Assembly (NCBI GenBank): GCA_010094045.1
Contig: ML986700.1
Coordinates: forward strand, 90,192-154,191
Direction of reading: 5' to 3'
From: Lojkania enalia
Taxonomy: Eukaryota; Ascomycota; Dothideomycetes; Pleosporales
Length of the DNA stretch: 64,000 bases
Under the pieces are notes generated by a model. It saw only the letters and a list, made by a program, of their open reading frames with translations. It ran no database searches and was not told where the DNA came from. This document shows positions 19,592 to 55,300 of the stretch, piece by piece; the first letter of the stretch is position 1; each line of letters opens with the position of its first letter. The position numbers and the translations under genes are program-made.

Positions 19592-19714
19592 TAGACTAAT
19601 TTTACGGAATTATAGCAATATTCGTTGTGCGCATGGGTTTTCTAGTTACTGAAAGTCAAAGTACCGATGGTTTGTCCGGTCACATGGGGTGTCCGGCAAC
19701 CCCGGGACGGATGT
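19592..19714 (-). repeat. Right terminal inverted repeat
   Basis: Read inwards from 19,714 it begins ACATCCGTCCCGGGGTTGCC, matching the left repeat. It is followed outside by TA (19,715-19,716). A third, RIP-mutated copy of the same end is at about 44,198-44,320, also followed by TA. Confidence 0.85.
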
Positions 19715-22700
19715 TATATTAAGTTACGACGCTTGATAGGAATATGCCGTTTACTTAGAGAGTGGTTAACTGATTTCCGCTTTGAAGGCACTACTGGCAA
19801 CGCTTTCTCAGCCGCCCAATGATCTATTGTCCCGAAAGGACTATCCAATCTTTGAGCATCAATCAGACTTTTTAGTGTGGTCGGGAAGCCGCTAATTACT
19901 TTAGACACATCCGTAACGCCTCGGATTGATATAGCAATAATATCATCGAGGGAATCGGCCGTAAATTTCACTCTACACTTAAACGGCGGAAGGCTTTTTG
20001 GGACCGCTGGGGCACAGCATACGGGGCGTCCCTGAACTATAAACCAAGATGATGTATCAAATAGTCGATGGTAAAAGTAGCGACGACCCTCTAAAGGGAG
20101 ATCGAGCCGACAAAAAATATAACCACTACATCTGTACTCGTTACCACTGAAAGGTGGGAACTCATCCAACTCGAAATAGAAAACGGAGGCAATTATTGAT
20201 TCTACTACCGCCGAAAATAAAATCTTCTTTAAGTATATAACTTAAGTAGCTTATACCTTCATCTCGGGAATTTTACGGACGTCGTCCAATTAAGGTTCCC
20301 CACCCTTTAGTTAGAGATTTATTCGGTGATATCGCTCGCGAGAGTTCGAACTCAGGGTATTAGCGAACTTTCTCTATGCATCTTCGCTGTTAAGGCTTCG
20401 CATAAAGCTCCGAAATAATTAGATATAAAATAGGTCTTTTACCTGGCTGTCAGAGGATGTTGCTAATAAGGTTCCAGTACTAAGTAACAATACAAAATCA
20501 GGATCGCATTTCTAAGGCTAGAGAAATCGAGTCTCCTAATAGGTAATACTTGCAGGGTTATTATGCTGTAGGCTACCATCCTGGAACGTCCCTAGACTGT
20601 AGACGACTCTGGGCTTGAAGAACCTGTGACGAGTTAGATATAGTATCCCTACTATAGCGCTTCGAACATACCAAGGAGCAGCAGACGTACAGCATGCACT
20701 ATAGAGGCATGAGCTTCATTTATAAGGAAGGGGAGCCTTACTAACGCTTCGCTAACTGAGACATTATGCTGTAGATTATCAGCACGCATTACATCATATC
20801 CTTAGTATTGTCAGTAAAGAGCACCTAACTAAGATAACAGACTTGCCGATATTATCTGGGCGTCTTCCCCCATTATAATTTGTAAATAGCCAAGGAATAG
20901 AGTCTTTTATAGTTGTAGTTGTTACGGCAACCTTAGTGTTATTTTGGAGAGGGTTAAACATCTGAACATGTGAGTCGAATATCACTTTAAAGGCTGACTC
21001 GATAGCTAAAAGGCTATACTAGCCATCCTCAATATATGCTACTAGCATTCCGAGGGCTTTGGAAATTATAGTAGGTGCTTCCCTTTTTTTACCGAAAGTC
21101 TTGTGCGCAACTTCTTCAAATCTTGCTAAAGACTCAGCAGTACTCTACTACAGCAAAAATATACCAATAACGATAAGTCCGCCTACCGATATTTAGATGC
21201 CTTATTAGAACTAGAAGATGGGTAACTTACCAGCTGAAGTTCCACAAACGAAATTGAAATAGTTTCTAACTAGACAGTTAAATCTAGATAATACCTTTTC
21301 AAGATGTTCCAAAAATACTAGAGGGATAACCCCTCTTATACTACCCCTATTAAGGCTAAATATACGTATCCCAGCGGTAGGAGGGACGAACCGAAAAACT
21401 AAAGCCTGGTAACAGACCCCGTAGAGAACGCACTCAGCTAGTTCGTAGGTGTTCTTCTCCGACCAAGACCGCTGTCCATATACCTTAATGTATATATCAC
21501 ATAGAGCATGCCTATATACTAAGACTTTCTCCGGCATGCGCATAAAGTAGTAAAAGCACGATCTGTAGCTCTTAAATTTATTTAGGTAAGGTTGCAAGGT
21601 TTGTAAAGTCCGCTAATAAACTTCTACGGCTAAGATACTAGAAGTTGAAAAGTTGTCGAATAACGACTTATAGTTGCGAAATAGTGCCGAAAAAATAGAC
21701 TCTTGGAGACTTTAATAAATTGTATACTTTACTACTGCTACTCGACATGTATTATAAAAGTGCGCCTTAAAGAGGAAGGAGGGGTAGAAGTCTAATTCGT
21801 TAGTAACGATCTAGAGTAAAGTGCGGGGGGGTAGGTAGCTCACTGTATACGCCTGGCGGGTAGTTTACTAGAAGTAAGGCGGATGCAACTAATAGGATAA
21901 CGAGCTGCTAGAGCTACGCCTAAGATAGCATTTGATTTAAGCAATCTAATAAGCAGTTTTCTAAGCTATTAATAGAGAAGCTATAGGGGCTTGTAGCAAC
22001 AGCAAATAAAAACGGGCTATTGTTCGTGGCGAAGAGGTAATCGATCACCCGTTTCGAGAGTGCCTGGAAGTAGAGAGGCCCGAATTATGCTGAAGTACGG
22101 GCTTCTATTACTTAATCGGATAGGGCTAATAAACGCCTTTATAAGGCCGAGGCTTTCTTTACTGGCGCTAAAGTCGACTTTAGCCCCATTATTTTAACGG
22201 CCTAGAAATGGCGGAATATATCTTGCTAAATCTCTACCTTTAAGTTATACTCTTTTAGCTCTCGCATCACTCTAGTAACTAGTATAAGAACTTGTATTTC
22301 TGCAATACTTTCATCAAAAATCTTAGAGGTTGTATCTATTACTAACAGGATCTGCGGCAACACCTTAAGATCCGAAGCCACCCCCTTCACCACCTACCAA
22401 GCAAGCCATTTCGCTACTACCTTCTATCCTCCAAAGTCGGAAATATAGTAAACTATTACACTTAAAAAGGGAGCAAAGACTCTATTATATAAAGTAGTAT
22501 AAAACTTTCTCCGGTTATAATATGGGAATTTCCAGGATGTAGTTGTGCTAGAAATCTGGCCTGCGGCTAAGCTCCTGCTGTATATCTCGTAATCTATTAC
22601 TGTAATATAGTTTTGCGCAGTAAGTATAGAAGATGTTAAGAGGCGAACCTAGCTATATATTAGTATCAGTTCTTCCATTCCAAGTATATGCTTAAGGAGG

Positions 22701-22837
22701 AGTGATTTAGTTTTTCGACCGACTATCGTTATAAAGGATACTTTAGTACTAGTTGCTACGTCCGGCGCATTTTCGTTTTTAGTTAGTAGGTTCCCTCCAG
22801 AAGAGCAGTTAAGTATTATCCAACTATAACTATACAT
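19714..22837 (-). pseudogene. Patatin-like phospholipase, inactivated by RIP
   Basis: Exons 22837-21844, 21791-21231, 21182-20847, 20800-20746, 20698-20672 and 20623-19714 join to exactly 961 codons with no indel but about 25 in-frame stops, all explicable as Gln or Trp codons hit by C-to-T or G-to-A. Five introns of 46-52 nt were inferred from splice signals; the third uses a GC donor (GCAAGT at 20,846). Patatins are serine lipid acyl hydrolases with a Ser-Asp dyad. The serine motif GTSAG survives (about 21,230-21,244, split by an intron) and the Asp motif DGS is at about 20,575-20,580. The oxyanion loop DGGGIRG has become NRGSIRG (21,331-21,354) by three G-to-A changes. The long N-terminal half is typical of large fungal homologues. 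The start ATG follows an A-rich run; its stop codon contains the TIR element's target TA. Confidence 0.85.
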
Positions 22838-23056
22838 TTTTTTTTGTTTTTTTCCTTTCTTTTTTACTTTTATAATACAAAGACCTTTATATCTACAAGC
22901 CTTATATCTTCCATTATTTTTCCCGTCTACTGAAACCTGTTTCCTATTACACTGAAGTGTAACTTAGTAATACTGTTTATAGAATATAGATACCCGTAAA
23001 ATAAGTCTATTTAATACTTATAAATACTATATCGCTCCTCCCTCGAGATTACTGTA
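22838..23056. promoter_or_regulatory. Divergent promoter region between phospholipase and DUF3723 fossils
   Basis: About 220 bp separates two start codons facing away from each other. It begins with a T-rich tract on the plus strand (22,838-22,868), which is an A-rich leader for the phospholipase. Less RIPped than the DNA to its right. Shared regulation of the two genes is plausible when they were alive. Confidence 0.4.
22947..22962. promoter_or_regulatory. Small inverted repeat in the divergent promoter
   Basis: TTACACT and AGTGTAA are perfect 7-bp arms separated by GA, roughly midway between the two divergent start codons. This is the form of a dimeric transcription-factor site, but the match could be chance and no factor can be named. 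Confidence 0.25.
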
Positions 23057-26000
23057 ATAGCATCGCTTGAGGAGCTAGACAAAGCCCTTGCTATCGATAA
23101 AGAAAAGTGTTATCGAGGCCTTGCTCGAGTAAATTTGTCAGCATTAAATTTCGATCATCCTCTTATTAGAAGTAAATATTAAAAAATTTCCAAGAAAAAT
23201 GTTCGACGTATTTATAATATTTTTAATTAAACTAGCTGTTTTCGGCTGTAATAAGAGAACTTTATTAATGCTATTATAGACGACGCAACTCTAGATACAT
23301 GCTTGTTAGATTCTAGAATCTTAAGAAATAAGCTACTTTATATACGCGAAGGGAGATCTATACCTTCTCTACCCCTCCTTAAGATTAACTACTTATCTAG
23401 GTTATATCGTATAGAGGCTGCTAAAGCGTTCTTGCTGAATAATAACTAGTAGTAGGTGGTCTAAATCTTTTTAAAAGGTCCTATATATCTTAATATAACT
23501 ATTAATTATTAACTAATTACTACTAGATATACTAGAGGAGATTTTATTATAAGTTATTAAGTCTTATATAAATAAATAGCAGCTATTAGATGGAGAAATC
23601 TTTTGAAAGATACGCTATTATTATTAAATTAATAATAAGGATGCGGAAAATCGGTGGTAGGCCTATCTTAACTATTTAAAGCTAAAGGACCTGCATTAGC
23701 TCCTTAAGAAGTTTAGACTAGTATCTATATTTAATACCCTTGTTAATAAGTCTAGACTTTAGGCGAAAGTATAACTTAGTATATTCTACCGCCTACTAGC
23801 TTTAAAATATAATGATGTAAAGTCCTAAAACTAGCTTAGCTTAGTATTTCTATTAATATACTCTAGGAAATACTAACTTATTTTAGACATATTAAGAGTA
23901 TATAGGAATATATTCTTAATATAAGCGGTACTCAACTATCGCCTTTAATTATCAATTTAATTATTATAGAGAACTTAGAGCTTCTTACTCTCTAGTATTC
24001 TACTAGAGATAGGAAATACGTTTAACAGATAATAACGAATAATAAGATTTTCCCTACTATCCGCGAAAATTATATTCGGTAGGTATTACTATATAATATC
24101 TTTTCTATTTATATACTAATTCCGACCCTATAGACTTTTTTTAAAATGCTAAAGTATTTAGAGCCTTACTATAAAATTCTTAAGCAACTTCTTAGTAATA
24201 AACTAAAAAGTATAATTTAGACCTTATTACTCGGTTACTATTTTCCTCTAGAAAAGATAATAATTTAAAAATCAGAACGCTTTATAGTTAAACTTATTAA
24301 AGATATACTAGAAATTTAAAAGAAGTTTATAGCTTATATCCAGCTTTAGGCCTTTTATATCCGGAATTTTAACCGATTAGGTCTATATACACCTAGAAAA
24401 GAGTGTAGAAAAGCTAAACCGTTAGTAAAGGAGCTAAATCCTATCTTATTACAGTATCTAGCTAAATTTACTATTGCTTAAGAATTCTAAACGCTAGCCG
24501 CGTTAGAGTTAATTAAATAAGATTCTTAATAATAACTTACTCTTAAGTATTTTTATAAAATAAATCTACTATTATTAAATTTTAGCGAAGAGTAGATAGA
24601 TTATATTATATCCTCTAATTTATAGTATCTAGACAAGGCTAAATTAATAGATCTATTAGATTCCGCATATATTATTCTAGAAAGAAGGTGTAGTTAGCTA
24701 TTTAAAGATGACTATTTGCGGGATAAATCTATCTTATTCTTCCCTAACCTCTATATTATATAAGAGTTTCCCGAAGTTATATACGAATATATTAGATATA
24801 ATCTTTTCCGCACTATATTTAGTAATTATACTTTAAGGGTAAGTCTTATACCTAAATCTAGGGTACTTATTAATCGTTTTTAAGCTAATAATATAAGCTC
24901 TATACTAGTTGAGATTAGTTAGAGAAGACCTAAAGGTAGATCCTAAACTATACTAGAAACTAGAGTATTATATTAGTAAGAACTACTTACTTTAAAGCAA
25001 GAACTTAGAAATATATAATAGCAGTTTTAAATATTAGAAGTTTAATACTAATAGGAGATATAAGAGTCGCGTAATTATATTATATAACTATAATAGAAGC
25101 TTAATAACTTAAGAGTAATTATAAAAGGACTATACTAAGAAGTAGAGGAAATATAGATCGCTTCAAAACCTTTTAATATATAGCTTCTAAAAGGAAAGAA
25201 TAAGAAACTAGAGGGGGGTATTATAAGGAAAGGGACTGAGAAGAAGGTTAAGGACGCTAAGAGGGTAGTAAGACAGATGAAAATGTAAAATGAGGTAGTA
25301 AAATAGAGACTTATTAAGAATGTTAAGACTAAAAGACGGTAGATCCTTATAGATGCGTAAAATTTCATGCAACAAGTTTAATAGTAAGGCGAAATTAAGA
25401 AGTAAGCGGCTCTTAAGTAATTAGAGGAGTAAGCAAATGCTGCTATTATTGAAAAGTAACTGCAAAATGAGAGAGAGAAGCAATATTCTACTAAGCAAAT
25501 AAAGGAATAGGCAAATACTTTTGTCCTTTAATCCCAGCAACAAAATTAAATAGAGAAGTAGCAACTAATAATAGATGTAGAGATCCTCTTATCGTAAGCT
25601 TTATCTATATAATAATAAGCTACTCTAGCTAAGTTAATAGAAGATATTACTCTAGTCGTATATAAACAACTAATAGAAGATTTATATAAGTATAATTAAA
25701 GTACTATAAGTAAGGAGATAGAGTAGTATAAGTATATATACTTTTAAATACTTAAGTAAGAAAACTTAACAATTTTCTTTGTTTATAATATTAAAGATAA
25801 TAATATAATTAAAAGCTTGTAGCTACCTTTTAATATATTTCTCTTACAACTACAGTCTCTTCCTTTAGAAGCGGGTAAGAATTAGTAATTGTAGTTACTT
25901 CTTAAAGATTTAGAAAAACTTACTAAAAATAAATTAACTTACTACTAGATGCTTAATAGAAATAATAAAACTATTATAAATCTAGAACTTATCTTAGAAG

Positions 26001-27050
26001 TATATAGATAGACCGGTACCTACTTTATTAGGTTTAATAATCTTATAGATAGACTTTAGAGAATTCTAGCCTTAGAGTTTAAACGGCGTTAGTAAGGTGC
26101 AGCCGCCCCTCTAAGCGTTATAACTTTATATTCTTAGTAGTATCTTTTTAATAATAATAATAAAAAGTACTAGTATTTATATATCTAAACAATTAATATT
26201 ATATTATAGCTATATTTTACTAACTTACCTCTAGCTAGTACCTTAGAGTGGAAGATTAAATTAGCTATCTATAGAGTCTAATATCTTTTAATTATTCTTT
26301 ATCCTCGACGGAAGCTACTTTAGTATAAGTAGTATAGGTATACAACTTAAACTATAGTTTATACTTTAAACTCTTTAACTATATATTTTTATAAATAGGT
26401 TAAATAGCCAGCTCTTAGAGTTTATATAGTAACCAGTATCGAAGGCTGTTTTAATACTAAAGGTAGGAGCCGTCTACACTTATTTAGACGGGGAAGAGGT
26501 AGAGAACTAATAGTTCTCTTATAGTTAAGTTGTAAGAGATATAAATTGTACTTTACCTTTAGAGATACTATTACTAACTAACTAAAAGTAAGAGGGTCGC
26601 TCTATTTTAGGCTTAACTCTTTAGATCTAGTAAAGATAAGTATAGGGTATCTTTATACAGAAAAAAGGACGTATATAATCTTCTAGACTAGTAGGCTAAT
26701 CTAGACCTTCTTCTTAAAATAAGAAGATAGAAGATTCCCCTACAGGCCTCTTAACAAAGATAGCTACTTAAATACCTTCCTCGAGTTTAGTAAGGAGTAT
26801 AGCCTTCCTAAAGAGGCCTTCCTTTCTAGTTCTATAAGAACGATCTATATTCCTAGGTTTTATAGATATAGCTATATCTAGAATATAGATAATAATCGTA
26901 AAAAGAAACAAAATACTTATTTAAATAGATTGTAAAGACAGTTTTCTAGCTCCTATACCAGCCAATTAGAGGTTATATAAGAAGTGTTACGATTCTTACG
27001 TGAGCTAAAATCTATAAGAAAAGTACTATAACTAGAGTACGCTATTAAGC
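23057..27050 (+). pseudogene. DUF3723 family gene, RIP-degraded, frame preserved
   Basis: A single plus-strand frame (codon phase checked at 23,078, 23,345, 24,122, 25,433 and 26,429) can be followed for about 1,330 codons with dozens of TAG/TAA stops, no indel and no obvious intron. Family hallmarks: YRIEAAKAFLL followed by a W-V-V strand (about 23,400-23,470, the conserved H/R-x-x-EAAxxFL block), LQTFFKMLKYLEP (about 24,130), and LGYYFPLEK (about 24,230) followed by an AYIQL..FYIRNF block. Downstream is a long Gln/Lys/Glu-rich coiled coil (25,000-25,760), then a conserved-looking tail. The start was probably an ATG now read ATA at 23,057. DUF3723 proteins have unknown function but are recurrent Starship cargo. 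Divergent from the phospholipase. The same phase stays readable to about 27,600. Confidence 0.75.
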
Positions 27051-29150
27051 GCGCTAACTTAATAACCTTATATTAGATATATTTTAATATAGCTATATAT
27101 TCGGTATTTATTAAAATATAATTTAGAAAATATATTACTATTTTATTATTTCGGTATATATTATATAACTATTTAAAACCGGCCTATTAGTCTATTAGAT
27201 ATCTATAGTTGCGCCCTATAGAAATATAGGTAATAATTATATATATACTCTACTACTCCTTAGTTATTACTTTAATATTAGTTTAGAGAGTCTATTAACT
27301 TCTTACTATATAAACGTAGGAACGCTTACTTTTACTCTTTTTAAAATAGATTATATATACTTTAGTAATATCTAAATAGAAAGGAAGTTTAGATATAAAT
27401 ATTCTAGCTAGTATAGTTATCGTGTTTTATCTTACTAGTAATATTATCGCGTCTATTCTAGGGGTCGGTACTAAGTTAGAACTTTTAGCCTATTTAAGGG
27501 TTCTTAGTATTCTTAACCTTACAATTCTGTCTATTAGCGGGAGAATAAACTTTATAGTTAACAAAGTATTTAGGCTCTCTATAATAGAGTACTACTTATT
27601 TTATTAGTAGATTAGTTATATATCTCTTCTATAAGCTTTTATATATACTCTATTAAAGTTTGTAGAGTATAGTTAGATTTTTAGTAAGGTTAACTTAATA
27701 GTAAGTCTTCTATATAGTCCTTTAGTAGAAATTAGCTAATAAATATTAGCTTCTTATTCTCGTTATAATTCTAGAAATAACTTTAATACTCTATATACGA
27801 AGAGTTTTTTACAAGTTTTTCTTACATCTATATTATCTCTTATCTCTCTTATTGCTAATAATTTTATAGCTATATTTTAGTAAAACGTCTATATATATTA
27901 CAATTTACCTTATAGTATTATTAGAGCTCTTTACTCTCTAAAAACTATTTTAGGTTATCTTTCTAATCTATTAAAATACTGGATTAGAGTTATAATATCT
28001 AGCTAGCGTTAAACACTTTATATAGATAGATAGAAACGAAGTATTCTAAGTCCGTATTATACTAAAATAGTACTAGTATATAATATCTAGATAATATATA
28101 TACCTTTTACTTCTCTATTTTCAAGTTTTAAGTCTAGATTATCTAGAATATTATCTATATATAGTTTTCTAGATTACTATTAATAAAAACACCTCTAGTT
28201 ATATATTAGTACTTCTTATAAACTGTAGAGATAGATTTAGTAAAAGATTAGGCCTAGCTAAAGGCGTATTACTAGTAATTATAGATAGTCTATATAGGGG
28301 TAGTAACCTAGAGTATCTATCTACCTACAATACAATTATTTTTCTAGTAGATAGGATTAATATTATAAATTACTTACTCTTAATTTATTATTTACTTATT
28401 TATTATAATATAAAAACTGTACGAGTCTAATATTTGTCTATTATCTAGTTCCTAAATATATTAGATTATATTAGCCTCTTAATATATAGTATAATAACTG
28501 CTAACTTAGTAAAGATTAATTTTAGTAGATAGAAGAGTTTTTACTCGCTTTATATGATATAGATAAGAGCTATATTTTTACTATATATATATTTTTCCCT
28601 TGCGAAATAGAAGGAGCTACGTAGAGCTATAAAGTTAAACTCTTATAGTCTAAGAAGTAAATTTATAGGACTATAGACAATCTAAATATAGATTAGTAGA
28701 TTAAAGAGGAGAAGTCTGTAGAAGCTAGAAATATAATTATATTAGATTAGCTATATAAGGGTTCTTTTTAATATATTTACTAATTAAGAGTAGTTTATAA
28801 AACCCTATAATTTAAGCTTTATATTTATAAAGCTATCCGATCGAGCCGCAGTAAGATTATAATAATTAATAGAGATTTTCAGCCTAATAAAACTAAAGTA
28901 GTAATACTATCTACTCTACATTATATTTCTTAGATAATTTTTTAAGGATCTAGAAGCTTAGGTAAAGAATTATAGATAATTTTTAAAATACTATTACTAA
29001 TATAATAGTATAAAGAATTCTTAGGATTAAAATTTTAGTAAAAGTTATAGGAGTATAAATTAATATAAGAGAATTCTAATACTACTAGCGCTTATCTAAG
29101 ATACTAATAGGCGGAAGTAATTATATACTAAAGTAATCCGACTGTTAGTA
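27051..29150. other. RIP-degraded AT-rich DNA; possible extension of the DUF3723 frame
   Basis: The DUF3723 phase continues into a hydrophobic, stop-poor stretch (27,422-27,607) that looks membrane-like. Whether it belongs to the same protein is unclear. Beyond 27,700 no family could be recognised. Confidence 0.35.
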
Positions 29151-30000
29151 TTATATATAAAATATAGTACTATAACTAAAACTCTCTATTCTCTATAAAT
29201 AGAAAATAGAAATTATAAAAAATAAGGTTCCTTAGTTTAAGAAGCCTATAAAACCTACTACCCTAGGCTATTATAACTACGATCTCTTTAGTTCCTTTAA
29301 GTAAAGTATTCTTAAAGTACTAATAGCTAAACGCCTTTTTATATTTACTCTTCCCTACAACTTGTATTATTCTCTCTTCGTCCGGCTCTATAGAAGAAAT
29401 TAATAGAATTGTAAGTTACTAGCTTTTAAATAAGAAAGCTTATAGTTAATTATTAATAGGTAATATATTATAATAGATATAATATTCTAATCGTCTATAT
29501 TCGCATTTTTATAACCAAGCTAGTAATAAAGTAAGAGGTAATTATAGCCTTTAGAAGTAAGTAATTAAGGACTAATATTAACCTTTAGATTAGTCGGGTA
29601 GAATTATATATAGATAAAAAGGAAGCGTGCGAAGTCTTCTATTAACTAGAATATTATCATCTAAAGATATAAGATTATATTTAGGACCTAATAGTAGAGG
29701 ATAAGTAAAAGTAGTAGACGATTAAGGAACTAGAGTATACTTTAACTCTATAGAATAACTTACCTTTAGGAGATACGGTTTTAAATAGTATTACCTAGAA
29801 GTAGTAAATATTTAGTCTATTTAGGTCTATTAACTAAGATTAACGCCGTGTTATTAAATTATATATTATTAGAATCCTTCCTAAATCCCTATAACTCGTA
29901 ATAAGTAGATATACTATACTACTTTCCTTAAAGCAGCTGAAAGTATTCTAGTAGAGTAGTTTCGCCGCAAGAATAGTATAGTAATATAATATCTAGTAAT
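29150..30000 (+). pseudogene. Fossil reading frame of unknown function
   Basis: Plus-strand frame of about 150-200 codons (clearest 29,560-29,990) with TAG/TAA-only interruptions: a charged helical part rich in Glu, Lys and Gln, then a Leu/Ile-rich part. No family recognised. Boundaries are approximate. Confidence 0.3.
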
Positions 30001-33000: not shown

Positions 33001-34230
33001 ATAATTAAGTAACTTTATTTTCTTAATCTTCTCTTATTCTTACTTAAGTTTAACCTTCTTAACTATAATTATTTAACTGCTGTAGATATAGATTAACTAT
33101 AACTATATTATCTAGACTAATTCGCCGAATCGTTTTATTAATTTCTAGAGAGACCTATAATATAATATTAAACCTTTTTTTAATTCTACTATTACCTCTA
33201 TATAGAACTTTATATAGCTCTCTATAATCTTCTATAATTTCTCGAGAAGAGCGGCTTTCGTAAAAAACTAAGGCCTTAGATAGTACTAAAAAGCCTCCTT
33301 AATCGGCTTTATACTTATATTAATATATTAGTAAAGAATAAAGCTAAAAAAAATTTTATCTTATAGAGGTCTAATATTTTATATATTTAATACTATATTT
33401 CTCGATTCAAGAAATAGGCGTCTAAATTCTTAACTAAAAGAATAATTGCCTCTAGGGTTTCTATAAATATAAACGCGTTCCTATTCTCTAGTTATATATT
33501 TAGATATATTTCCGTTCTCTAAAAATTGTATTTTATTTCCTAAATATATAACTTAATATACTACTATTCTATAAAAATAGAGCGCTATATATTAATAAAT
33601 CCTAGACTTTATATATACCTAATTCTACAGCCTATAACTTTATTTCTACTACTTAGTATGAGTTTATTAGCCCTTAGATACTACGCTCTAATATTATTCT
33701 ATTTTAGTGCTAAAATATAGCCGATTAATAGGTTTATTTTCTTAAAGTAGAAGAAAGCGACTTATAAGATAGTTTTCTAAAAAGTACCTTAGAAATAGCT
33801 AACAGTCTTAATATCTATACTACTTCAGAACCAGCTAATACCGGGGATTTATTAGCCTACTTTTAGAGTAGTACTTTTAGTTTAATTAAAAATACGAGTC
33901 TTAACTTTTATATAAATAGCACCTTTAATCTACTATCTAATAAAGAAATATCTTATCTCTATTACGGAAGTATAACCGAATTAGTAGTCTATTCAGAATC
34001 TTATCTACTTATAAAAGACCTACCAAGTTCTAGTAATATAATAATATTCCTTTAGTATAGTAGTAACAAAAATCCTATTAATAAAGACAAAGCCCTAATT
34101 TATTATTCTAAGTGATATATTCTACCCCCTAATCTAGAGCGGTATTACTAATTAGCTTAATTTCTATAGATTGAGATATCGCTTTATAATAAGTGTCGTA
34201 GCCGATTATATTAAGAGATTACTTATCGAG
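30001..34230. other. RIP-degraded AT-rich DNA, no identifiable gene
   Basis: TpA-dominated sequence with simple TA runs (for example 31,465-31,482) and CTATA reiterations (30,045-30,060). No ORF or family on either strand that I can support. Confidence 0.5.
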
Positions 34231-43710: not shown

Positions 43711-43717
43711 AAAATAG

Positions 43718-44320
43718 CTGGTTTCGATACTAGAAATACGTTAGCTAACTAGATAAGTACTAGGTCTTTTAAATCTATAATACTACTCCCAATTCTAAGA
43801 CGGATTTAGTAATATTCCGAGAGTTTATATAATCTATACAGCTATATATCTTATAATAAAATACCTATAGAGATATAAGATAAGAAGTATAGGTTATCGT
43901 ATTAGCTAAGATTAATAATTTACTTCTGCTAGAAATACTAATTAATATAGTAACCCTATATAAAATTACCCGCGACAGCGCGTATAGGGCTAATAATAAC
44001 TTTCTTATATTAGAGGGAGGTTTTAGGGCTTAGATAGGGTTATTCTACAAAAATTTAGAGTGATAAGAACTTAAAGTTAAGGTTATAGGGAGGGAAGTCT
44101 ATTACGTAATAAAAGAAGTATAAATTAGACTTAGAGATAATAATATAAACGTAATTTTAGAAAAGAGTAGATTATAGATATTTAGAATTAGCTATAGTAG
44201 ATTATTTTTATAGAACTATAATAATATTTATTATATATATAGACTTTCTAGTTACTAAAAGTTAAAGTACTCCTAATTTATCTTGCTATATAGTATATCT
44301 TACTATATAGAGATATACGT
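43718..44320 (+). mobile_element. RIPped copy of the TIR element's right arm
   Basis: Aligns collinearly with 19,100-19,714 with mainly transition differences and only short length changes. Landmarks: GGTTTCGAT at about 43,720, a GCGA-AGCGCG block at about 43,971-43,982, GGGAAGTCTATTA at about 44,092, and CTAGTTACTAAAAGTTAAAG at about 44,248. The last 45 bp match the terminal repeat base for base in length and end at a TA (44,321-44,322). Same orientation as the intact element. It proves the family was multicopy and RIP-exposed. Its left boundary is not resolved. Confidence 0.75.
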
Positions 44321-44322
44321 TA

Positions 44323-46450
44323 GAGTCTAGTACTACTCTAATAGTTAAGCGAAAACTTTAATAGTAATAGTAGTAGAAGTAGTTACTAACTATATATAAG
44401 AATCTCTATCAGCTGATATACTAGACCCCCTTTTTAATAGATTAGGCTCTTCCTCCTATCTAATAGTTAGAAATCTTTACTTAAGTTTCTTCTATAAAGT
44501 CGTGAGTAGTAGTAATAAATTGGTATACCGAGCTACTTATACTAACCCAGTTTAACTCTAGCTTTAATAATTCTACTAAGCCTTTTATAATATACTCTTC
44601 TTATTCTATCTCTAATAATAACTCTAATTTATTATAGTATAACTCTTATAAACCTAACTTAATATACTAAACTTAGTTGCTAATTAAAAGTAAATAAAAA
44701 GGCCGTATCTAAAATACCCTAATTTCTAGATTCCTCTAATATAATAATTAAGTATCTAGAGGGTGTATATTCTAGAAATATTTATATATAGTAGAACTTA
44801 GTACTTTATAGAGCTTATTTTTAACGTAAATAAGGACAAATATATTAATAGAATTAAAGCTCGCGAAAAACTTAATTAAAGCTTTATAATCCTCTTTCTA
44901 TACTAGAGGTCTTCTATAAATATAATATTTAATAAAGGTATTAATAGCTCTATAATATTTATCTTAAATTTAAGTAGTGTTAGGGATAGATATAATTCTA
45001 CACTCTTAATATTTCTAGTATTTAGTTTAGAAAGAGAAACCTAAATACAACTGCGGAGTTAAGAGTACTTAATATATTAGATAAATAGTATTAATATATA
45101 GGATTATTCTTATACTAAGAGAAGTATACCTTTATATTTAAATCTAATATTTAGGATTATATATAATACTGTAGCTAATATACTAATACCAAATATATAA
45201 TATAGTAATATATATCCGTAGAACGCCTCTCTTCTATAAAACTTAAAGAGTGCTAAAATAAAGTATATAATAAAATAAGATACTATTTATAGTTAAATTT
45301 TTTTAGAAATAGAATATCTATATAGCTTTATTAGTATCTATAAAATATCCTCTAATATAACTTACCTTTCTACGAGTATAGGCTACAGAATCGTAAGAAT
45401 TAGGGTTAGAATTAGGAACGCAGTATACTAACAATATCTTCTAAACGAAATAGATAAGAGAAGTTCTTTTAAGATAGCTAGTTGTAGAAGATATTAAATA
45501 ATAATAACTCCCTAGCTTGAATAATTTTAGTCTCTTCTTTTAAAGGGTAAAATCGAAAGAATAAGAACTAAAGTACTAGAGAGGAGATAGAAAACTACTA
45601 TAATAAAGGCTAGGGTCTTTAAGAAATCCGGCCGGCGCTAGGTAATATAACTAGAAACTAAGTATAAGTAGAGAAACAATGCGAAGAAAATACTACTACT
45701 AAAGAGGGTAATTATAGAGAGTACTATAAATAAAGAAGTAATACTATTATCTATACTATAATAAGGTGATTAAGTTTACTAGATTTTTAAGGTTGAGAAT
45801 TTCGAACTATATCTCCCCTTTTATTTATCTAATGGGGGTATAAATCGCGATAGTAAAAACTCATCTAAAACTAACAACGTTATCTAATATTACTAAGTAT
45901 TAGCTTAGCTAATATTTGAGCTACGACCTACTATATATAGATAACTAAACTTATTAATTTATGTAAAAAGAGTTAGTACCCTCCTTATTTAACCTAGGCA
46001 ACCAACTACTATTATAGAGTAGAAGTTTTCATCTAATAAGTACTTAATAAAGCTTTAAGTCTATTAATAAGGAGGTAATAACTGCTAATAAATCTCTAAC
46101 CACCCTAGAAACGTTTATATAATAACTAATAAAACGCTAATATTAGCTAATAAAATTTCTAATAGATAACTGCTAACGGGTAGTAATATTAGTTAATAGA
46201 CTACCTAATATTAACCGACAGAAGCCTTATATAGATTAGTATCTATCTTAGTAGTTAGAGGTGCTATATTTATCAGCTATTAAGTCTCTTTGTTAACCGA
46301 CAACTTCTATCAGCCTCTACCTATCTATTAATAAGCTCTACTTATTTACTCTAGTAATCTCTATTAGACTTCTATCTAACTAATTCTGCTGGGTATCTAG
46401 CAGTATTCTAGCTTCTATTTTCTACCTTAAACTCTAGAATTATCTAGACT
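44323..46450. other. RIP-degraded AT-rich DNA, no identifiable gene
   Basis: No supportable feature beyond the right flank of the RIPped element copy. Confidence 0.4.
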
Positions 46451-46459
46451 CTATCTAAT

Positions 46460-47720
46460 TATTTAGTACTCTAAAGGATGGCTAGAGTATAGATATTATC
46501 TAAATTAGCTAAAGAGGTACTTTTATTAGTATTTAAAATTATCGGTAAAGCTTATATTAACGTAATTAAGTAATGCCCGTTTAATAGAGTATTTAAAGCC
46601 TATAGTAAGCTTTTATAGGCTATAAAAGACCTAGAAAATAGTACTCCTCTACAGCCTAATAGATATATACTATTACCCTAAATAGATAGTATCTGAACAA
46701 ATATTATCCTATTAATAGACAGCTGTCTAATAAACAGTATTTCTCTAATATAGAGTGCTCTAATAAGTATCCTTACTTTAATAGATAATAAAAGTATTTC
46801 CTTTATAAAGAGGTGCCTGCTTAGAGACTTTATTTCTTAGATAAACGAAATTCTTCTAACGAATAACAATCCGCAGATAGATAGTATTCTTTTAGTAGAT
46901 AGTACTCTTATAAGAGATACCGCCTCTTATATAAATAGTTTTATACTAATAAATAAGGTTTCTTATATAAATAGCTATCCCTAAATAGATAGTAATCTTA
47001 TAGTAGACTTAAAGCTTAATTAGTTCTTTAAGATGCTGTCTACTAAGATCTTATAACTAAACCCTATCGAACTTAAACGTATCTATAAGGTTAACTCTAA
47101 GCTTACTAGTACTAAAGTTTATATAAAGCTTATAAAGCTTAGAAATAAATATTTGTCTACTTTATCCCGTTAATATTTAACTATATAATATCGAGAATAG
47201 ATAAAGATACAGCCTTTAGCCAGTACTAACTATACCTAATTTACTAAATCTTATAGGCTTAAATACTATCTTTGTATTTATACTAGCGAGGGTCTAGTAT
47301 TCTTAGAAGTAGAAGATAAGGTCTAATCTACGGGCCTATTAATACTAATAGGACTTATAATTTAAGAGTTTAGACGGGCGTAGATTTGTTTAAGTATTAT
47401 AACTAATATTATATTATTATTATAAGGTAAATATCCTAATATCTTAAGAGCGGTAGATAAGTACTCGCCTTAGATGCTAAAGCTACAGGTAAATTACGAT
47501 AAAGAGTACGAGAGTAAAGAAGATAGGGCTAGTAATATAGATAAGGGAGCTAAAAAAAAGCGAAAGAGATTACCGGTATTAGAAGCGGAGGTAGATAATA
47601 GACTAGAATCGTTATTTTATCCTTATAAATATAATATATACCCCCTATAAGCGCGATAATAATCTTAACAGTTATATCCTATTATAAACTATCTATACCT
47701 CTACTTATTCTAGAAATATA
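46460..47720 (+). pseudogene. Fossil gene of unknown function with a basic NLS-like run
   Basis: A plus-strand frame of about 400 codons with stop-only damage. The first half is Ile/Asp/Ser-rich with loosely repeated Gln-Ile-Asp-Ser motifs (46,680-46,990). The second half contains an acidic stretch followed by KKKRKR (about 47,555-47,575), a typical nuclear localisation pattern. Family not recognised. Confidence 0.35.
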
Positions 47721-48674
47721 AGATCTTAATATATCTATAGATAAAACTAGACTACTACTAAATATATTACCTCCTCTACTATAGTTATAGAGTAAGGTAA
47801 ATTCCTTCTTAAGTACGTGGTTAGATATTAACTAATAGTTTTAAAACGACGAAAATGTAAAAGCTATAATAGCTACGCGTCTAGCTGATTTAATATTTAT
47901 ATATAATACTCCTTTCTTAATATATAATAGTTCTAAGCTACTCTAAAAAACTATATTACTATTTAGAGTTGTAACTAGAGAATTTAGTACGCCTATAATA
48001 AGTATAACGTAATAGTAATATAGTCTAAAGAATATTTTCCCTTATTTTAATACTATACTAAACGAGTAATAAAGCTAGCGCTGTTATATTTAAGTAGGAA
48101 TACTTTATAATATTTCTTTCTATCTATATCTCAGGCTGTAGATACTTAACTTACTTTTCTATTTTAGTATAGTTTAAGATAGTAAATATCTTTATAGATT
48201 TACTAGGGAGGATTTTTACTTTATAGACAATCTTTAATATTATATTATATACCTATCCTATAAAGCCTACCAGCATTCTACTCTATTATATAATCTTTGT
48301 TTAAGCTAGATACTGTTATAATATTTCGCGTCGATATTTTATTACACTATTCCCTAAAATTAACGTTTTTATCCTCTAGAGCGTATTCTAATCTGTGTAG
48401 TAGGGCTTATTCTAGTATACAAGCCTTATACTTAGCGATTTCCTATCTTTTTAAGGAAAATTAAACTACCTTATAGTTACTTAGAATTCTAGTTAGAGGG
48501 AGATACTTTTAGCCCCTATATTTTATACGTTTATTAACTATAGGATTAATATATAAAGGCCTAAATAGCTAGTATCTAATAAGTAAGTTTAACCGGGTTG
48601 TTTACTAGTATTCTTATTAGGGTTAGCTAGTAATAGCGGCTAGTCTAATAGTATCTCGGATATACAGCATTACT
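47721..48674. other. RIP-degraded AT-rich DNA, no identifiable gene
   Basis: No supportable gene. Ends at a 17-base A run beside the assembly gap. Confidence 0.4.
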
Positions 48675-48691
48675 AAAAAAAAAAAAAAAAA
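48675..48691 (+). repeat. Poly(A) run, 17 bases
   Basis: Seventeen A residues followed by eight G and then the gap. It could be the tail of a retroelement or simply a homopolymer that stalled sequencing. Confidence 0.7.
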
Positions 48692-48699
48692 GGGGGGGG

Positions 48700-48807
48700 N
48701 NNNNNNNNNNNNNNNNNNNNNNNNNNNNNNNNNNNNNNNNNNNNNNNNNNNNNNNNNNNNNNNNNNNNNNNNNNNNNNNNNNNNNNNNNNNNNNNNNNNN
48801 NNNNNNN
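48700..48807. other. Assembly gap (108 N)
   Basis: A run of N flanked by eight G on each side (48,692-48,699 and 48,808-48,815), followed by a purine-rich AGAAGGGGGGAGG. The G tract itself is the likely cause of the break, so the true distance is unknown. Confidence 0.95.
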
Positions 48808-48815
48808 GGGGGGGG

Positions 48816-51800
48816 AGAAGGGGGGAGGTTCTTAAAGTACTAAGAAGTTAAACTATAATTAAAAATAATTGTTTTTTTAGGTTTTTAGAATATATTATCT
48901 TAATACCTACTAACGCCTATATTATTTAATATATTAATTACTAGATTAAAGAGTAAAACTTCTAATTTCAACCTAGACTAGATTTTAGTTAATCTCTACA
49001 GCTGTAGTAAGTAAGGTATATATTTATAGAGATATATACTAATTCTTTCTCCGTGTATATTCTATACTTTACTAGTAAAAGAATGTATTTAGTTAGCTTC
49101 GTATACTAATAGATAAGGAAAGCTAAGTAAGCAAATTTTTGGTTTAGTCTATCTAAAATCCGAACACCGAAAAGTAGATATAATATATATCTTCTAAATA
49201 TCTCTATATCTTACTTTCTCGCAATATAATAAGCTAGTAAGTTAGATAAGAGTAACTAAAACTTTTACTACTCCCTGTATTTATATATTATTTAATATAG
49301 TTTAGGTAGTCTATTTAATTAATAAACTAGTAGTACCTTCCCTCTTTTATATAGTACGGGTATTAATCTAGTACTACTAAAATACTATTAATATAAATAA
49401 TACTGTAGATTATCGAAGGATTTTTAGTATAAGAGCGTCTGTAAAAATACTAGTTAAACTTATTACTAATCTATACGCCGCAATTATAGTAGAAATAAGC
49501 CTTTATTAGAACGGTTAGACTAGAAGAGACTCTATAATATTTATCGAGATATATATACAACTTATTTATATACTTTACTTCTTAAGAATATCCTATCTAC
49601 TAGTATCTATCCGGCTCTAATAATATATGCTTGTTAATATATGCCGTAAAATAATTCGCCGTAATTTTTCCTATAATAGGTATTTAACACCTATTCTATA
49701 AACAGTAAGAAATATACTTACATACTCTCTCTATTTATTTAACTTTTATAGTAGCGATCTTATTTTCTCGTAAACAGTAAAGGAGATAAAAGTTTATTAT
49801 AGTTCTACTATTTAAATATTACTAGAATACTACTATATTTATAACTTAACTTACTTTAAAAGTTATTTACGGTACTATAGGCAATTACTATTATAGTTAG
49901 AAGTAGCATCTATAAAGAATAGTTTAAAAGGAATTAGGCTAGCCGCCTTAGTAAATATCTAGATAATATCTATAAGTTTAAGAGATTAATTCTAAGTTCT
50001 ATATAAGTAAGAGATAATTATTAAGTAGTTAAGATTATATTATAATTAGATATTAACTAATTTAGAGATAGGGTACATTTTTCTTAAGGCTAAATCGTCC
50101 TGGCAAGTAACTTTTAGGGTTTTTAACGATGACTAAATCTATAAGACTAAAAGTAGAGTTATAATCTTTTTCTATCCTCTTCTAATTATAATAAAAGAAG
50201 ATTTATCCCTAAGACTACACCCTATATATTATTAGAAGGAGTAATAGTTGGGGCTCTATTTACTACAGACTTTTTAACTTACGACAATAATATTCTATAG
50301 TATGCTAGTTGTCGAGCGTAATTATATTAAGTATAGCTTAATATCCTACTCGATAAAACTAAGATTATAGTAACTTCTCTATTATACTTAGTCTTAGTAT
50401 AGTAGTAGGAGATATTATTTTATTAGGATATATTCTTTATATAATTAGTACGTTTTAAGTTGTAGGTTTAAATAGAAGCTAGACTTAGATAGGCTATTCT
50501 AGAATCTAAAGGGAAAAGAGATTCTAATAACCCGTAATTCCTTTAAAAGCTTTATCAGTAATAGTAAAAGCTAAAATTAAGATAACTAGATATAAACTCT
50601 ACTTCTCTAGATTATTTATAAGAATTATAGTTATACTACTATTTTTAATTAGTTTAATACCTCCTAAAATACATGTTAACGTACTCTTTCTAACGTTTTA
50701 ATAAGGCTTTAGGATTCTTTAGACATATAAGTAGTAAGAAGCGGAAATCTTCTTCTTACTTAGTAACTAGTATTATTATATCTTTATAGAACAATCCTTC
50801 GCTTAGAGCGAATATTAGATAAAAACTAAGATAATATATTAATAGAATAATTAATAATATTTAAAGCTAGAAGTAAGGGTATTTATATTCGTATTTATTA
50901 TAAGCCTAGATAAAGGTAAAAAGATCTTTAATAACCGCTTCTAAGACGCGAGGTTTTGGTAGTTACATCTCCTAAACTATTCGAGGAGAGAGAAAATCCA
51001 GGTTATAGAATAAAAGCGATAATATCTTAATACTAGTAGAGAAAGAAGTTTTAAATTATATAATAAACGTTTATTAATAAAGTAAATATATTTAGAATAA
51101 CTTATTTTTATATACTTAAAGTTTTTAGATCTAAGTTTTAGAAACTCAGAAATAGAAAATAGAAACTAGGAAGGAGAATAGAATTTCAGTTAATATCTAA
51201 TTAACTGCAGTACCCTAAATAGAAAGTAGAAAGTAGAAAGGTTTTAGTAGTAATATCTAATTAGAAGGTTAGAGCCTAAAATAGTAAACTGTAAACGGTA
51301 TTATAACCCTTATAATAGTATATATAGTACTTACTACAATCGCTATAGAATATAAAAAGTTATAAGTATTAAATATACTATATATAGGCCCTATCTTAAT
51401 AGTTATAATCCCCAAGCTTTATTATATAAAATAATATACCTAATTCGATTATCTATAATCTTTATTAGTAAATAATTTAATAGGTAATATTAAGCTTACC
51501 TCTTATATATTTATCCTAGATAATATATCTACGATCTAATATAGTTTAGGGTATCTTAATTTAGTACTAAACTATTCTACTATAGTTGTACTATAATTTA
51601 AATTGTTAAATTTTAATTGTAAAGATTATTATATTAATTAATACTAATTGTATAGTAATTAGAAGTATACTCTCTATATACTCCAGGACTTTAAGTAGAA
51701 ATTGTAAACCGAGAGTGGAAATTTTATAAGTAAATATAGGGAAAGAAAGTCTTATTATATTACCCTATATAACGTAAGAAGGATAGTAGAATAAAGAATA

Positions 51801-52950
51801 AAAAATATTATCAAAGTACAATATATTATTATATAGGCTTAACCCTAAAAAGTAGATAGTATAGATTATAGTTAGTAGTCGCTTTATTAGTAGGCGACAA
51901 CTACTAAACCTTTACTAACAGCTAATAACCGCCGATAATCCTTTACTAATAGCTAATAACCGCTAGCTAAGCATACACCCTACTATAATATTAGCAACTA
52001 GAGCGTATAGTACTTCTAATATGTACTAGTTTACTAGTAGAGAAAAAGTTGTATAAGTAGATAGATTCTTTTTATAGTCCGACTACTTTATATTTTAGCA
52101 TTATCTTAATCTATACTAGTATCTATTCTAATATACGTAATTAACTAGAAGCTATTACTTAGGCTATTAAGAAGATGTAAAAACAGGAAACCGATTTTAG
52201 GCACCTCAGCAATCCAAATTAGGGACTAGAAAACCGATTTAAGTTTTTAATACTACCTACTATATAGTATACTTAACCTGAGAAATAATATAATATAGTT
52301 TTAACTATTCTATATAACTATTATATTTTAACAACAATTAAGATTTATAAACTTAAAGGTAAGGTAGAGTATAAACGAAAATTTTCAAAAGTAAGTCTAA
52401 ACCCTTAGTAGTAAATATAGCAAATTGTAGCGAGATTATAAAGTAGACGTATATTTTATTATATAGCACAATAGCCGCTTTTATATATTTACCTTAGTAG
52501 ACGAGCCTTTATAGCCCCTAAACCTAGAGAAACTAGTAAACCTCCCTTTTTTTTTTTTTTTTTCCACTCTATTGTATACTAACTTATCTTAGAATAAACT
52601 ATACCTTCTATCTATAAAAAGGTCTCCTATATATTTCGAAACTAGGTATTAAGCAAAAGTAGTAAAAAGGAAGATAACTAGCATTTAGTCTACTACTAGA
52701 TCCGGGTGTTATATAAGGTAATAAATAGCTAATTAGTTACCTATTTTTCTAAACGTCTAACTTATTAATATAAACTTAGTAAATAAGAATAAGAGGGATT
52801 AGATATCTTTATTTACTAGGTAGAAATAGTAATCAATTTTCCTTATAATATATACTAGGAGAGATAGAATCTATATATATTAATATAATACTCTATATAC
52901 ATTAAATAATATACTAGAAGATAAGGTAACTTAATAGTACCTCTTAACTA
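48816..52950. other. RIP-degraded AT-rich DNA, no identifiable gene
   Basis: No family assigned. Contains a 17-base T run at 52,547-52,563. It lies downstream of the DUF3435 fossil in the sense of that gene, where Starship cargo would be expected. Confidence 0.4.
52547..52563. repeat. Poly(T) run, 17 bases
   Basis: Homopolymer within RIPped DNA. It could be the complement of a retroelement tail on the minus strand, but no adjacent LINE-like frame was found. Confidence 0.5.
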
Positions 52951-55300
52951 GATATTATACCCTATACTTAAGGGCTGCGTGATTTTTAAAATACTCTTCT
53001 CCTTTAATCTACTCTAAATAAGAAGGATCTTAATATAGAAAACTCTATTAAAACGCTCCCTCAGCTTTATAAAGATTAATATACTTTCTAAGTAACTCCT
53101 TTTTCTTAAATTAGCAGATCCTCTCTATACGAATATAGAGAAGGTAAACGTTATCTATAAACGTAATTAGAATACTTAAGATAATCTTAACTTCGTTTTC
53201 TCTAATCTAATCTAAGCTCCGCATTTAATTTAGACCCTCTTAAATAGGTAAATCTAGGCTAATAACCTCTTTCAGCTACTTTATCTAATAGGCGTTAGGT
53301 TTTACGTCTATTACGCTTTAGTCTCCTTCGGATATAAATCGAACGTTAGTAGCTTTATTTAGTATACTATCTAGCTAACTCTCTACTTAATAGTAGTACT
53401 TAATAAGATTGCGGATAAACTTTATACGAGGTTTTATAGCCTATTCTTCCTCGAGTTTATTTAACTGCTAAGATAGTAATATAGCAATAATAGCTCGTTC
53501 TTAGAATTTATATAGTATAGAAGAACGGGCGGTAAAGTCTACCTTAATATTACTATTTAGTTGCCTTTTAATATTATAATCGTCGATAGTATTATAAAAA
53601 TCGAGAATAGCCTAATTCTCTTTCCGTTTACGTAAGATATTTATAAGACTATAAAGCCTGCGTTTAGCTTTATCGTAATAGTTATATAGCTCTGTTCCCT
53701 TTACAGTATTAATAGAGCGGTATCCTCGACGACTAATTTTTTCCTTATACTGCTCTCGTTTTACGCAAAGACGCAGAATCTTAGAGTATTAATCTAGTTC
53801 CGACTTAAATTCAAACTTCTATTCGTCTATTAGACCTATAGGGGCTTACTTATCCCTTAAAATACCTATCTATACTATATATTATATAAGGTCGTCCTAT
53901 AATAGAGTTCTAAAGTAGATCGATTGGAAATCGCGCTTAATTAAATTAGGTAAATAGAATTACCGGTATATATTACCGTAATAACCCATCGTCTAATCTT
54001 ATTCTTCTAGAAGGATAACTCCTAGAAAACTTAGTAAACATATTATCTCTACCTAAAATAGAACAACTTACTATTTATTTTTCTTCTTAAGGCTTATTAA
54101 AGCTAGTAGAGTTTAAGTAGTTACTTAAAACCGGCTACGCGGTTTAACTATATAAAGTAGTTGTGATATTTACTATAGGGTAATACTTTCGTATCTAGTA
54201 CTTTACTTCTACCAGCTATCTTCTTAATATCCCGAAACATTAGCCGATCTAATATCTCTTTCTTAAATCTAATATTAAGAGATTATTTATACGCAGGAAT
54301 TTCTAATATAAAGATCTCTTCTAGAAAAGTATAATAACGTTAAAATGTGTTATCTACAATTATATAGCTTACTAAACAGGAGATAATATAAAAGGCTAAA
54401 GTATCTTTAAAATAGAAAATAAATCTTTTCTTACGAGTTTATTAGTACTAATTAGGCTGTTCTTTAATTATTATTAATATATACCATCTACCTTTACCCC
54501 TAGAGTTTTTTATATAGACAAGACTTACATGGATAATAGTTATAGTTTAATTCTAGTTATACTTATTATAGACTCTAAGAATTTTAATATATTTATATAA
54601 AAGTACTTTATTTAAACCCTTTACATTTAAACTTTTAATAAATACCTAAGAACGTATAGCTGTAGCTGTATTAAGGAGGAGTATCGTATCTATCTATACT
54701 TAAAAACGACCATAGTAAGGTTTCGGATCTATCTTCTAATAGGTACTAAAAATAGTATATAAGTCCTTCTTATATATTATATACTTTTCCTTTTCTAATA
54801 TATCTAAATTATACTTTAGGGTTAAATAGGTCGGTATCTACTAAAATATATTAGTCTATTCTTCGGAAAAGGGCGTTTAATTATATATCTTATATATTAA
54901 GCTCTATACTATTATCTATATTATAGCCTGCTACATCTATAAATTTGTAAAGTAACCTCCTCTAGTATACTTTAATTATACTCTCCTTCTTAATTCAGTA
55001 ATATTCTATATACTATTTAAGGTATATTTTAAAGATATCAGCCTTATAATAGATAAGAGCGGCTTCTAGATTATAAGTGTTTCCTAAGTTACTACTTAGT
55101 TTAAAGTAAAACCTATATACTATTTATTAGTATTATATAAGGTAGGCTTTTAATAATAAACATACTTTTCCCATTTCTAAAACTTACTAGCAATAAGCTA
55201 TTTCGACCAGTCTCCTCGTCTTAACTTTACCTTTCCCTAGTTTTTATAAAACGCTATTCTTTATAGCAAGTTCCGTTTAGAATTAGTATCTTCCTTAACC
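52950..55300 (-). pseudogene. DUF3435 tyrosine-recombinase (Starship captain-like), RIP-degraded
   Basis: The minus strand reads as a DUF3435 protein with TAG/TAA damage. From high to low coordinates: an N-terminal core-binding-like region (55,200-54,600), then KVLDTKVLPYSKYHNYF and an LYQL..ALRRKIN block corresponding to the first catalytic-Arg region (about 54,220-54,080), then MGYYGNIYR (about 53,985) where captains usually have a His-containing MGH motif, and a C-terminal block with KRDFQSIYF, YKEKISRRGYRS, GTELYN and AILDFYNTIDD (53,950-53,550). DUF3435 proteins are tyrosine recombinases that mobilise Starships. A phase change near 54,000 is either an unresolved intron or an indel. Captain-like homologues outside Starships exist, so mobility is inferred. 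Confidence 0.75.

What the first reader, a model, noticed from the sequence alone, without database searches (positions are those of the whole stretch)
19714..55300. A RIP-killed Starship: DUF3435, DUF3723 and patatin-like phospholipase fossils in one block
Three dead genes can be read through RIP stops: a DUF3435 tyrosine recombinase (minus, 55.3-52.95 kb), a DUF3723 gene (plus, 23.06-27.05 kb) and a patatin-like phospholipase (minus, 22.84-19.71 kb). Published surveys of Starship giant transposons report DUF3435 as the captain and DUF3723, patatin-like phospholipases, NLRs and ferric reductases as recurrent accessory genes. The captain is transcribed toward lower coordinates, which would place the cargo to its left, as seen. 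The element would span at least 35 kb. Ordinary gene callers would report almost nothing here because every frame is riddled with TAG.
Basis: partly seen in the sequence, partly recalled or inferred. Interest (0 to 1): 0.9.

Follow-up and report, generated by a model that had tools for sequence, protein, structure and literature searches.

The report
Complete mutation-killed Starship giant transposon
A fungal chromosome holds the fossil of a giant mobile element (a Starship), about 76,000 bases long and riddled with stop codons by the fungus's own repeat-mutating defence, with both of its ends still recognisable and uninterrupted copies of its landing site elsewhere in the genome.

Summary
The three fossils are real. 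DUF3435 (minus) and DUF3723 (plus) pass Pfam with stops masked. The patatin-like gene (minus) fails Pfam but aligns, with its GTSAG motif, to a non-RIPed patatin/DUF3723 pair on contig C127. They belong to one RIPed Starship whose ends I located. A 14-base inverted repeat, AGGGAAAMTGCATC, sits at C123:70051 (+) and window 55973 (-), just inside the two breakpoints of an interrupted repeat. The flanks, joined, match uninterrupted repeat copies at C51 (948 columns, 1 gap, 89.8%) and elsewhere in the window (88.8%, 18 gaps). The element is about 76.1 kb (C123:70041-146177), covering window 1-55986 and 20.1 kb left of it. The captain is the first detectable gene, pointing inward. Cargo also includes NLR-like and DUF7492 fossils and a non-RIPed ULD/ankyrin gene. 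The main weakness is a 108-N gap (48700-48807) between captain and cargo. RIPed Starships are in print, so this is a new member of a known kind. The more interesting by-product is a second Starship family in the same genome, present as non-RIPed and RIPed copies differing almost only by RIP-type changes.

The parts
1..55986 (-). Window part of the RIPed Starship (element about 76.1 kb, C123:70041-146177; the other 20.1 kb lie left of the window); strand given as captain direction
   Evidence: Inverted terminal repeat pair and interrupted repeat at both ends
55960..55973 (-). 5' terminal inverted repeat AGGGAAAATGCATC; its partner AGGGAAACTGCATC is at C123:70051-70064 (+), outside the window
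55886..55986 (-). 5' terminal region, 77% to a non-RIPed 5' end on C12 and 67-70% over 83-84 columns to the 5' ends of the C293 and C172 Starship
55987..55995 (-). Candidate target-site duplication, 5' copy TTACTATTA (other copy TAACTAATA at C123:70032-70040; unoccupied window copy TTACTAATA)
   Evidence: 7 of 9 bases shared
52950..55300 (-).
23060..27050 (+).
19714..22840 (-).
   Evidence: homology to C127:108978-112231; no PF01734 hit
36262..36876 (+). DUF7492 fossil (PF24320, E 3.4e-15)
16326..18679 (-). Non-RIPed ULD_2 / ankyrin-repeat gene region, open stretches in three frames (introns or frameshifts not resolved)
48700..48807 (.). 108-N stretch between captain and cargo
55997..64000 (.). 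Right flank: RIPed repeat cluster into which the element inserted; two direct copies 4.09 kb apart; one weak RVT_1 match among 12 frames
59641..60579 (+). Uninterrupted copy of the target repeat (empty site), 88.8% to the joined flanks

Best explanation
It is one complete but dead Starship of about 76.1 kb in an ascomycete that is probably related to Pleosporales. Inferred life history: a DUF3435 tyrosine-recombinase captain at the 5' end recognised the short terminal repeats and pasted the element into a TTACTAATA-like site inside an AT-rich repeat. The element carried a divergent patatin/DUF3723 pair, an NLR-like gene, a DUF7492 gene and other cargo. During later sexual cycles, when a homologous partner copy was present, RIP converted C to T across the captain and most of the cargo. 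Stretches the partner lacked escaped. Shown: the genes, the two ends, the rejoined target repeat and the RIP signature. Inferred: that the captain itself did the move, that a partner copy existed and was lost, and that the element is now immobile on its own.
For: Genes. Ends: AGGGAAAMTGCATC has exactly two mismatch-free hits in the window plus five contig stretches (250,007 called bases; 0.0025 expected), facing each other just inside the two breakpoints. Allowing 2 mismatches adds one hit, at C293 (3 found, 2.35 expected), so only the exact matches and their placement carry weight. Related ends elsewhere: a non-RIPed 5' end at C12:449759-449872 (76% over 116 columns) and a non-RIPed 3' end at C3:749883-750007 (83% over 125 columns). 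Empty site: joined flanks align to C51:72596-73543 over 948 columns with 1 gap (89.8%) and to window 59641-60579 over 952 columns with 18 gaps (88.8%). This is the best of three right-hand starting points tried; the other two gave 13 and 25 gaps (C51) and 30 and 42 gaps (window). Architecture: the 5' terminal region is related to those of C172 (70%, E 9.6e-6) and C293 (67%, E 2.6e-5), two copies of another captain-headed element whose mutual homology also stops abruptly there. RIP: index and stops; 53 of 93 aligned stops lie opposite Q, W or R against a background of 12% (the relatives are only 28-43% identical, so many columns are noise).
Against: A 108-N stretch (window 48700-48807) lies between the captain and the cargo, and a 498-N stretch (C123:75894-76391) between the NLR-like region and the 3' end. 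A scaffolding error could join pieces of two elements. Because Starships are site-specific, two insertions at the same site of two repeat copies could mimic the rejoined flanks. The patatin piece does not pass Pfam. The candidate target duplication matches in only 7 of 9 bases and lies in AT-rich, partly palindromic sequence; the C51 copy and the C12 and C3 junctions do not read TTACTAATA. The exact terminal bases were chosen with the help of the C12 and C3 comparisons, so these do not confirm them independently; the C12 alignment ends at 55986 but runs on weakly to 56000. In the end comparison the direct C276 hit (E 5e-4) is no better than other, probably chance, hits. No ferric reductase was seen. 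A search with the masked second half of the captain returned no homologue at E <= 0.001.
Confidence: 0.9

Rival explanations
1. Scaffolding chimera or nested remains: the captain with its 5' end, and the patatin/DUF3723/NLR cargo with the 3' end, come from two different Starships of the same kind.
For: N stretches at window 48700-48807 and C123:75894-76391; other Starship captains and copies exist in the genome; isolated Starship ends exist at C12 and C3.
Against: Both ends carry the same 14-base inverted repeat and lie in the two complementary halves of one repeat with 1 gap in 948 columns. The RIP signature runs on both sides of the gap. The 498-N stretch lies inside one WD40 reading frame.
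Confidence: 0.07
2. A solo DUF3435 recombinase (not a captain) beside unrelated decayed genes in an AT-rich isochore; no single element.
For: DUF3435 recombinases are more usually found solo (PMC12134995, passage); RIP hits all repeats in such regions.
Against: The defined ends, the empty site and the captain-first architecture. The patatin/DUF3723 pair recurs, in C172 about 36 kb downstream of another captain, though that element's 3' end was not found.
Confidence: 0.02
3. Another tyrosine-recombinase element, such as a Crypton, that happens to carry host genes.
For: Cryptons also use tyrosine recombinases (recalled; Horizon was at first taken for one, PMC9594970, passage).
Against: PF11917 captain, length of 76 kb, and recurrent Starship accessory genes.
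Confidence: 0.01

Closest known systems
RIPed Starship of Gaeumannomyces tritici type A (PMC11905480, passages)
   Same: Single, gene-poor Starship under 100 kb with extensive RIP
   Different: Different fungus; here the ends and an unoccupied target repeat were read directly and the fossils named
Starship Horizon of Pyrenophora tritici-repentis (PMC9594970, passages)
   Same: DUF3435 captain at the 5' end, DUF3723-type gene (printed DUF3273 in that passage), ankyrin and NACHT genes, target-site duplications
   [quoted passage not shown] this one is RIPed
Phoenix-family Janus and Hephaestus-family Starships of Aspergillus fumigatus (PMC12153272, passages)
   Same: Target sites A(N3)TTACTA(N2)A(N15)CT and TTAC(N7)A resemble TTACTAATA here; direct repeats 2-12 bp (19 of 20) and terminal inverted repeats (18 of 20) usual
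   Different: Captain family of this element was not determined; the motif likeness is suggestive only
Starships Frontier and Limos (RIPed copies) (PMC12257634, passages)
   Same: Copies that differ from a relative mainly by RIP
   Different: Those compare different elements or species; the C293/C172 pair noticed here is within one genome

Membership tests
Starship | DUF3435 tyrosine recombinase (captain) | tested here: met
   PF11917 over cut-off in two pieces
Starship | Captain is the first gene at the 5' end, transcribed inward | tested here: met
Starship | Defined boundaries with terminal inverted repeats | tested here: met
   AGGGAAAMTGCATC pair
Starship | Short direct repeat / target-site duplication | tested here: inconclusive
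   TTACTATTA and TAACTAATA, 7 of 9 bases, in AT-rich sequence
Starship | Insertion shown by an empty site | tested here: met
   In two paralogous repeat copies, not in another strain
Starship | Recurrent accessory genes (DUF3723, patatin-like, NLR, ferric reductase) | tested here: met
   Three of four: DUF3723, patatin-like, NLR-like (NPHP3_N plus WD40, C123:75.7-78.4 kb). No ferric reductase among the families displayed; one search displayed 25 of 35
Starship | Presence/absence variation between strains | not testable with these tools
   No related strain held
Starship captain families (Phoenix, Hephaestus and others) | Captain falls in a named family | not tested
   No reference captain set at hand; masked captain half found no homologue

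The most novel reading that the evidence does not exclude
Starships in this fungus re-enter after RIP. A second family exists as non-RIPed sequence (C293, C127) and RIPed copies (C172, C276) that are, RIP-type changes aside, 99.76-100% identical over the stretches compared, so the intact copy would have arrived, by a cross or by horizontal transfer, after its sisters were mutated. The dead element of the window, which keeps both ends, would be an older layer of the same recurrent invasion.
Probability: 0.3. Interest if true: 0.6.

Novelty: new member of a known kind. Interest (0 to 1): 0.42.

Why it matters
It shows that a giant transposon can be delimited to within about 25 bases even after RIP has destroyed its genes, using an interrupted repeat as the empty site. 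Finders that rely on a readable captain gene would be expected to miss it (inference, not tested), so counts of Starships in RIP-active fungi may be too low. The matched RIPed and non-RIPed copies of a sister element make it testable whether Starships outlive RIP by re-entry.

Tried and rejected
PF01734 on the window: no hit; settled by homology and gene order with C127 instead. Search for the C172 element's 3' end by its own 5' end: nothing convincing. Rfam scan of window 55900-64000: one match at E 0.95, below its gathering score, so no RNA-gene target was recognised. Homologue search with the masked captain half: 1,439 candidates, none at E <= 0.001. DNA search with window 30000-48600: all 46 rows fall in one dispersed repeat (about window 43.7-44.3 kb) and the search missed even itself, so it cannot be used to claim single copy; the captain-region search did find itself and is usable, within that tool's stated limits. 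The 138-base inverted repeats around the ULD/ankyrin gene looked like a gene-carrying transposon, but the repeat is dispersed in many places and both arms map to the same end of other copies, for example at C88:45383, so I do not claim one. My first reading of the duplication, up to 24 bases, was dropped after the C12 and C3 comparisons suggested that part of it is element sequence.
Full report
Place. The window is the last 64,000 bases of contig C123 (90192-154191 of 154,191) of an unnamed 58.1-Mb genome in 400 contigs. An open captain exon from the same genome (C293) finds 103 homologues; the best is unnamed (79%), and the named ones among the top include Alternaria, Paraphaeosphaeria, Lizonia and Zopfia. 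The host is therefore probably a dothideomycete near Pleosporales (inference); the species is unknown.

Genes. The patatin-like fossil does not pass PF01734. It is identified by its non-RIPed relative: C127 carries DUF3723 (minus) and a patatin-like gene (plus, with PF01734) in the same divergent order. tblastx aligns C127 to the window over both genes, with patatin stretches of 135 aa at 45% and 145 aa at 44% (the joint E of 1.2e-165 also counts other collinear pieces), and the window frame keeps GTSAG. Of the eight DUF3723 loci found, a patatin neighbour was detected at C127, C172 and C105 in a test limited to about 1.5 kb of flank and at the window. Not detected: C15, C53, C43 and C88. The window locus itself was missed by that short test, so those misses are not proof of absence. 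In C172 the pair lies about 36 kb downstream of a captain; that element's 3' end was not found. Searches showed no title or abstract about this divergent pair; I did not read those papers for it beyond the passages cited, so this is a weak negative.

Other cargo. A six-frame Pfam scan with stops masked, in chunks of 6-10 kb, covered the element apart from chunk junctions and about 1.2 kb of C123, of which about 1 kb was later scanned on one strand. Besides the above it found DUF7492 (window 36262-36876), a ULD_2/ankyrin gene in a non-RIPed island, and a WD40 stretch at C123:75695-76843 with an NPHP3_N P-loop domain just upstream at C123:77932-78375 (E 2.1e-6, over its cut-off), read as an NLR-like fossil. 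It also found an RVT_2 element with long open frames at C123:85970-89350, which I take for a Copia type (family identity recalled). One search displayed 25 of 35 families.

Ends. In the window and five contig stretches, AGGGAAAMTGCATC occurs without mismatch only at C123:70051 (+) and C123:146164 (-), the latter being window 55973. The mononucleotide expectation for an exact hit is 0.0025 in 250,007 bases; with up to 2 mismatches 3 were found against 2.35 expected, so the looser count says nothing. A 25-base pattern made from both ends finds, with up to 3 mismatches genome-wide, those two by construction and one more, at C3:749970, with none in the reversed-pattern control. C3 is a non-RIPed 3' end (83% over 125 columns) with no further likeness to the element's left or right parts in the 2 kb read. 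C12:449759-449872 is a non-RIPed 5' end (76% over 116 columns); in the 5 kb read only short pieces reach inward to about window 55307 and no captain domain was seen. C3's likeness stops three bases past the inferred 3' terminus. C12's stops at 55986 and runs on weakly to 56000. Because these comparisons helped to choose the terminal bases, they support the kind of end, not the exact base.

Empty site. Left of the element, C123:69599-70041 matches a repeat up to the break. Right of it, the same repeat continues from window 55997. Joined in a script, these flanks align to C51:72596-73543 over 948 columns with one gap at 89.8% and to window 59641-60579 over 952 columns with 18 gaps at 88.8%; two other right-hand starting points gave more gaps. 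In captain orientation the unoccupied window copy reads GAGTATTACTAATAATATATTATTAG. The 5' junction reads GAGTATTACTATTA then element, and the 3' junction reads element then TAACTAATAATATATTATTAG, giving a candidate duplication of TTACTAATA with 7 of 9 bases shared. Against this motif: the C51 copy reads differently there, and the C12 and C3 junctions do not show it. The 5' junctions of the second family read CTACTAATA (C293, C276) and CTAATAATA (C172), but the exact start of that element is not known, so these letters may be element sequence. Phoenix-family Janus in Aspergillus fumigatus has target A(N3)TTACTA(N2)A(N15)CT and the Hephaestus canonical site is TTAC(N7)A (PMC12153272, passages). 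I count this as likeness, not as a family assignment.

Size and architecture. The element is C123:70041-146177, about 76.1 kb, reaching window 55986 and starting 20.1 kb left of the window. The captain is the first detectable gene, 0.7-0.9 kb inside the 5' end, pointing inward. The 5' terminal region is related to those of C172 and C293 (E 9.6e-6 and 2.6e-5); C276 joins through its 91-94% identity to those two, its direct match to the window end (E 5e-4) being no better than background hits. Homology between C172 and C293 also stops abruptly at that point, with unlike flanks.

RIP. The composite RIP index is high over most of the element and its flanks and near zero or negative at window 15-20 kb, with mixed values at C123:70-74 and 80-90 kb. 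Around the ULD/ankyrin island the index rises gradually rather than at a sharp edge. I take this as a hint that the island was already there, unpaired, when RIP acted. The captain region gave no second full match in the assembly, so the RIP partner was probably lost; this is inference.

Second family. The non-RIPed sequence was taken as source. C293 to C172: 2,683 of 2,706 differences over 17,565 columns and 2,009 of 2,041 over 13,168 are C to T or G to A. C127 to C172: 1,245 of 1,250 over 6,287 and 1,277 of 1,297 over 8,303. C293 to C276: 502 of 502 over 3,926. Other differences are 0 to 0.24%. About 63% of the RIP-type changes in the first block are at CpA. C293 and C127 may be two parts of one non-RIPed element (C293 matches C172:40.9-73.4 kb, with rearranged pieces, and C127 matches C172:79.3-94.7 kb), which is not shown. 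Whether the copies are separate loci or two haplotypes was not tested.

Weak points. The 108-N stretch between captain and cargo, the 498-N stretch near the 3' end, the absence of another strain, and the imperfect target duplication. The rejoined flanks speak against a chimera but do not exclude one, because site-specific insertion could repeat.

Literature. RIPed Starships are known: Gaeumannomyces (PMC11905480, passages), Frontier and Limos (PMC12257634, passages). Accessory gene families are listed in PMC12506042 (passage). Captains are not one cluster and DUF3435 recombinases are more usually solo (PMC12134995, passages). In Verticillium dahliae, the majority of transposons in Starship regions lack a RIP signature (PMC12289983, passages). 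The 2022 survey that named Starships was not held. Verdict: a complete, dead Starship, new member of a known kind.

Noticed in passing
L039-L042 (C293), L028-L029 (C127), L032-L037 (C172), L045/L006 (C276): A second Starship family occurs as non-RIPed (C293, C127) and RIPed (C172, C276) sequence whose differences are 98.4-100% RIP-type changes, suggesting late re-entry of an intact copy or two haplotypes.
   Followed up: partly
L046-L047 (C12:449759-449872) and L048 (C3:749883-750007): Isolated non-RIPed 5' and 3' Starship ends; no captain seen in the 5 kb (C12) read, and no further element likeness in the 2 kb (C3) read. The open frames beside the C12 end look like ordinary genes by eye only.
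   Followed up: partly
window 16191-16328 and 19579-19716: Inverted 138-base arms (89%) around a non-RIPed ULD/ankyrin gene; the repeat is dispersed in dozens of places in the genome.
   Followed up: partly
C123:62416-69602 (L025) and window 59073-59347: A 7.2-kb insertion with about 285-base direct end repeats lies in the left flank, and a solo copy of that end repeat in the right flank, as read from the matches.
   Followed up: no
C123:85970-89350 (L027): RVT_2 (Copia-type, recalled) element with long open frames and little RIP inside the RIPed Starship.
   Followed up: no
window 10461-10673: Three direct copies of a repeat at 57-base spacing.
   Followed up: no
window 19714-24820, C127, C172, C105: Divergent patatin/DUF3723 gene pair detected at 4 of 8 DUF3723 loci; could be a functional unit of Starships.
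   Followed up: partly
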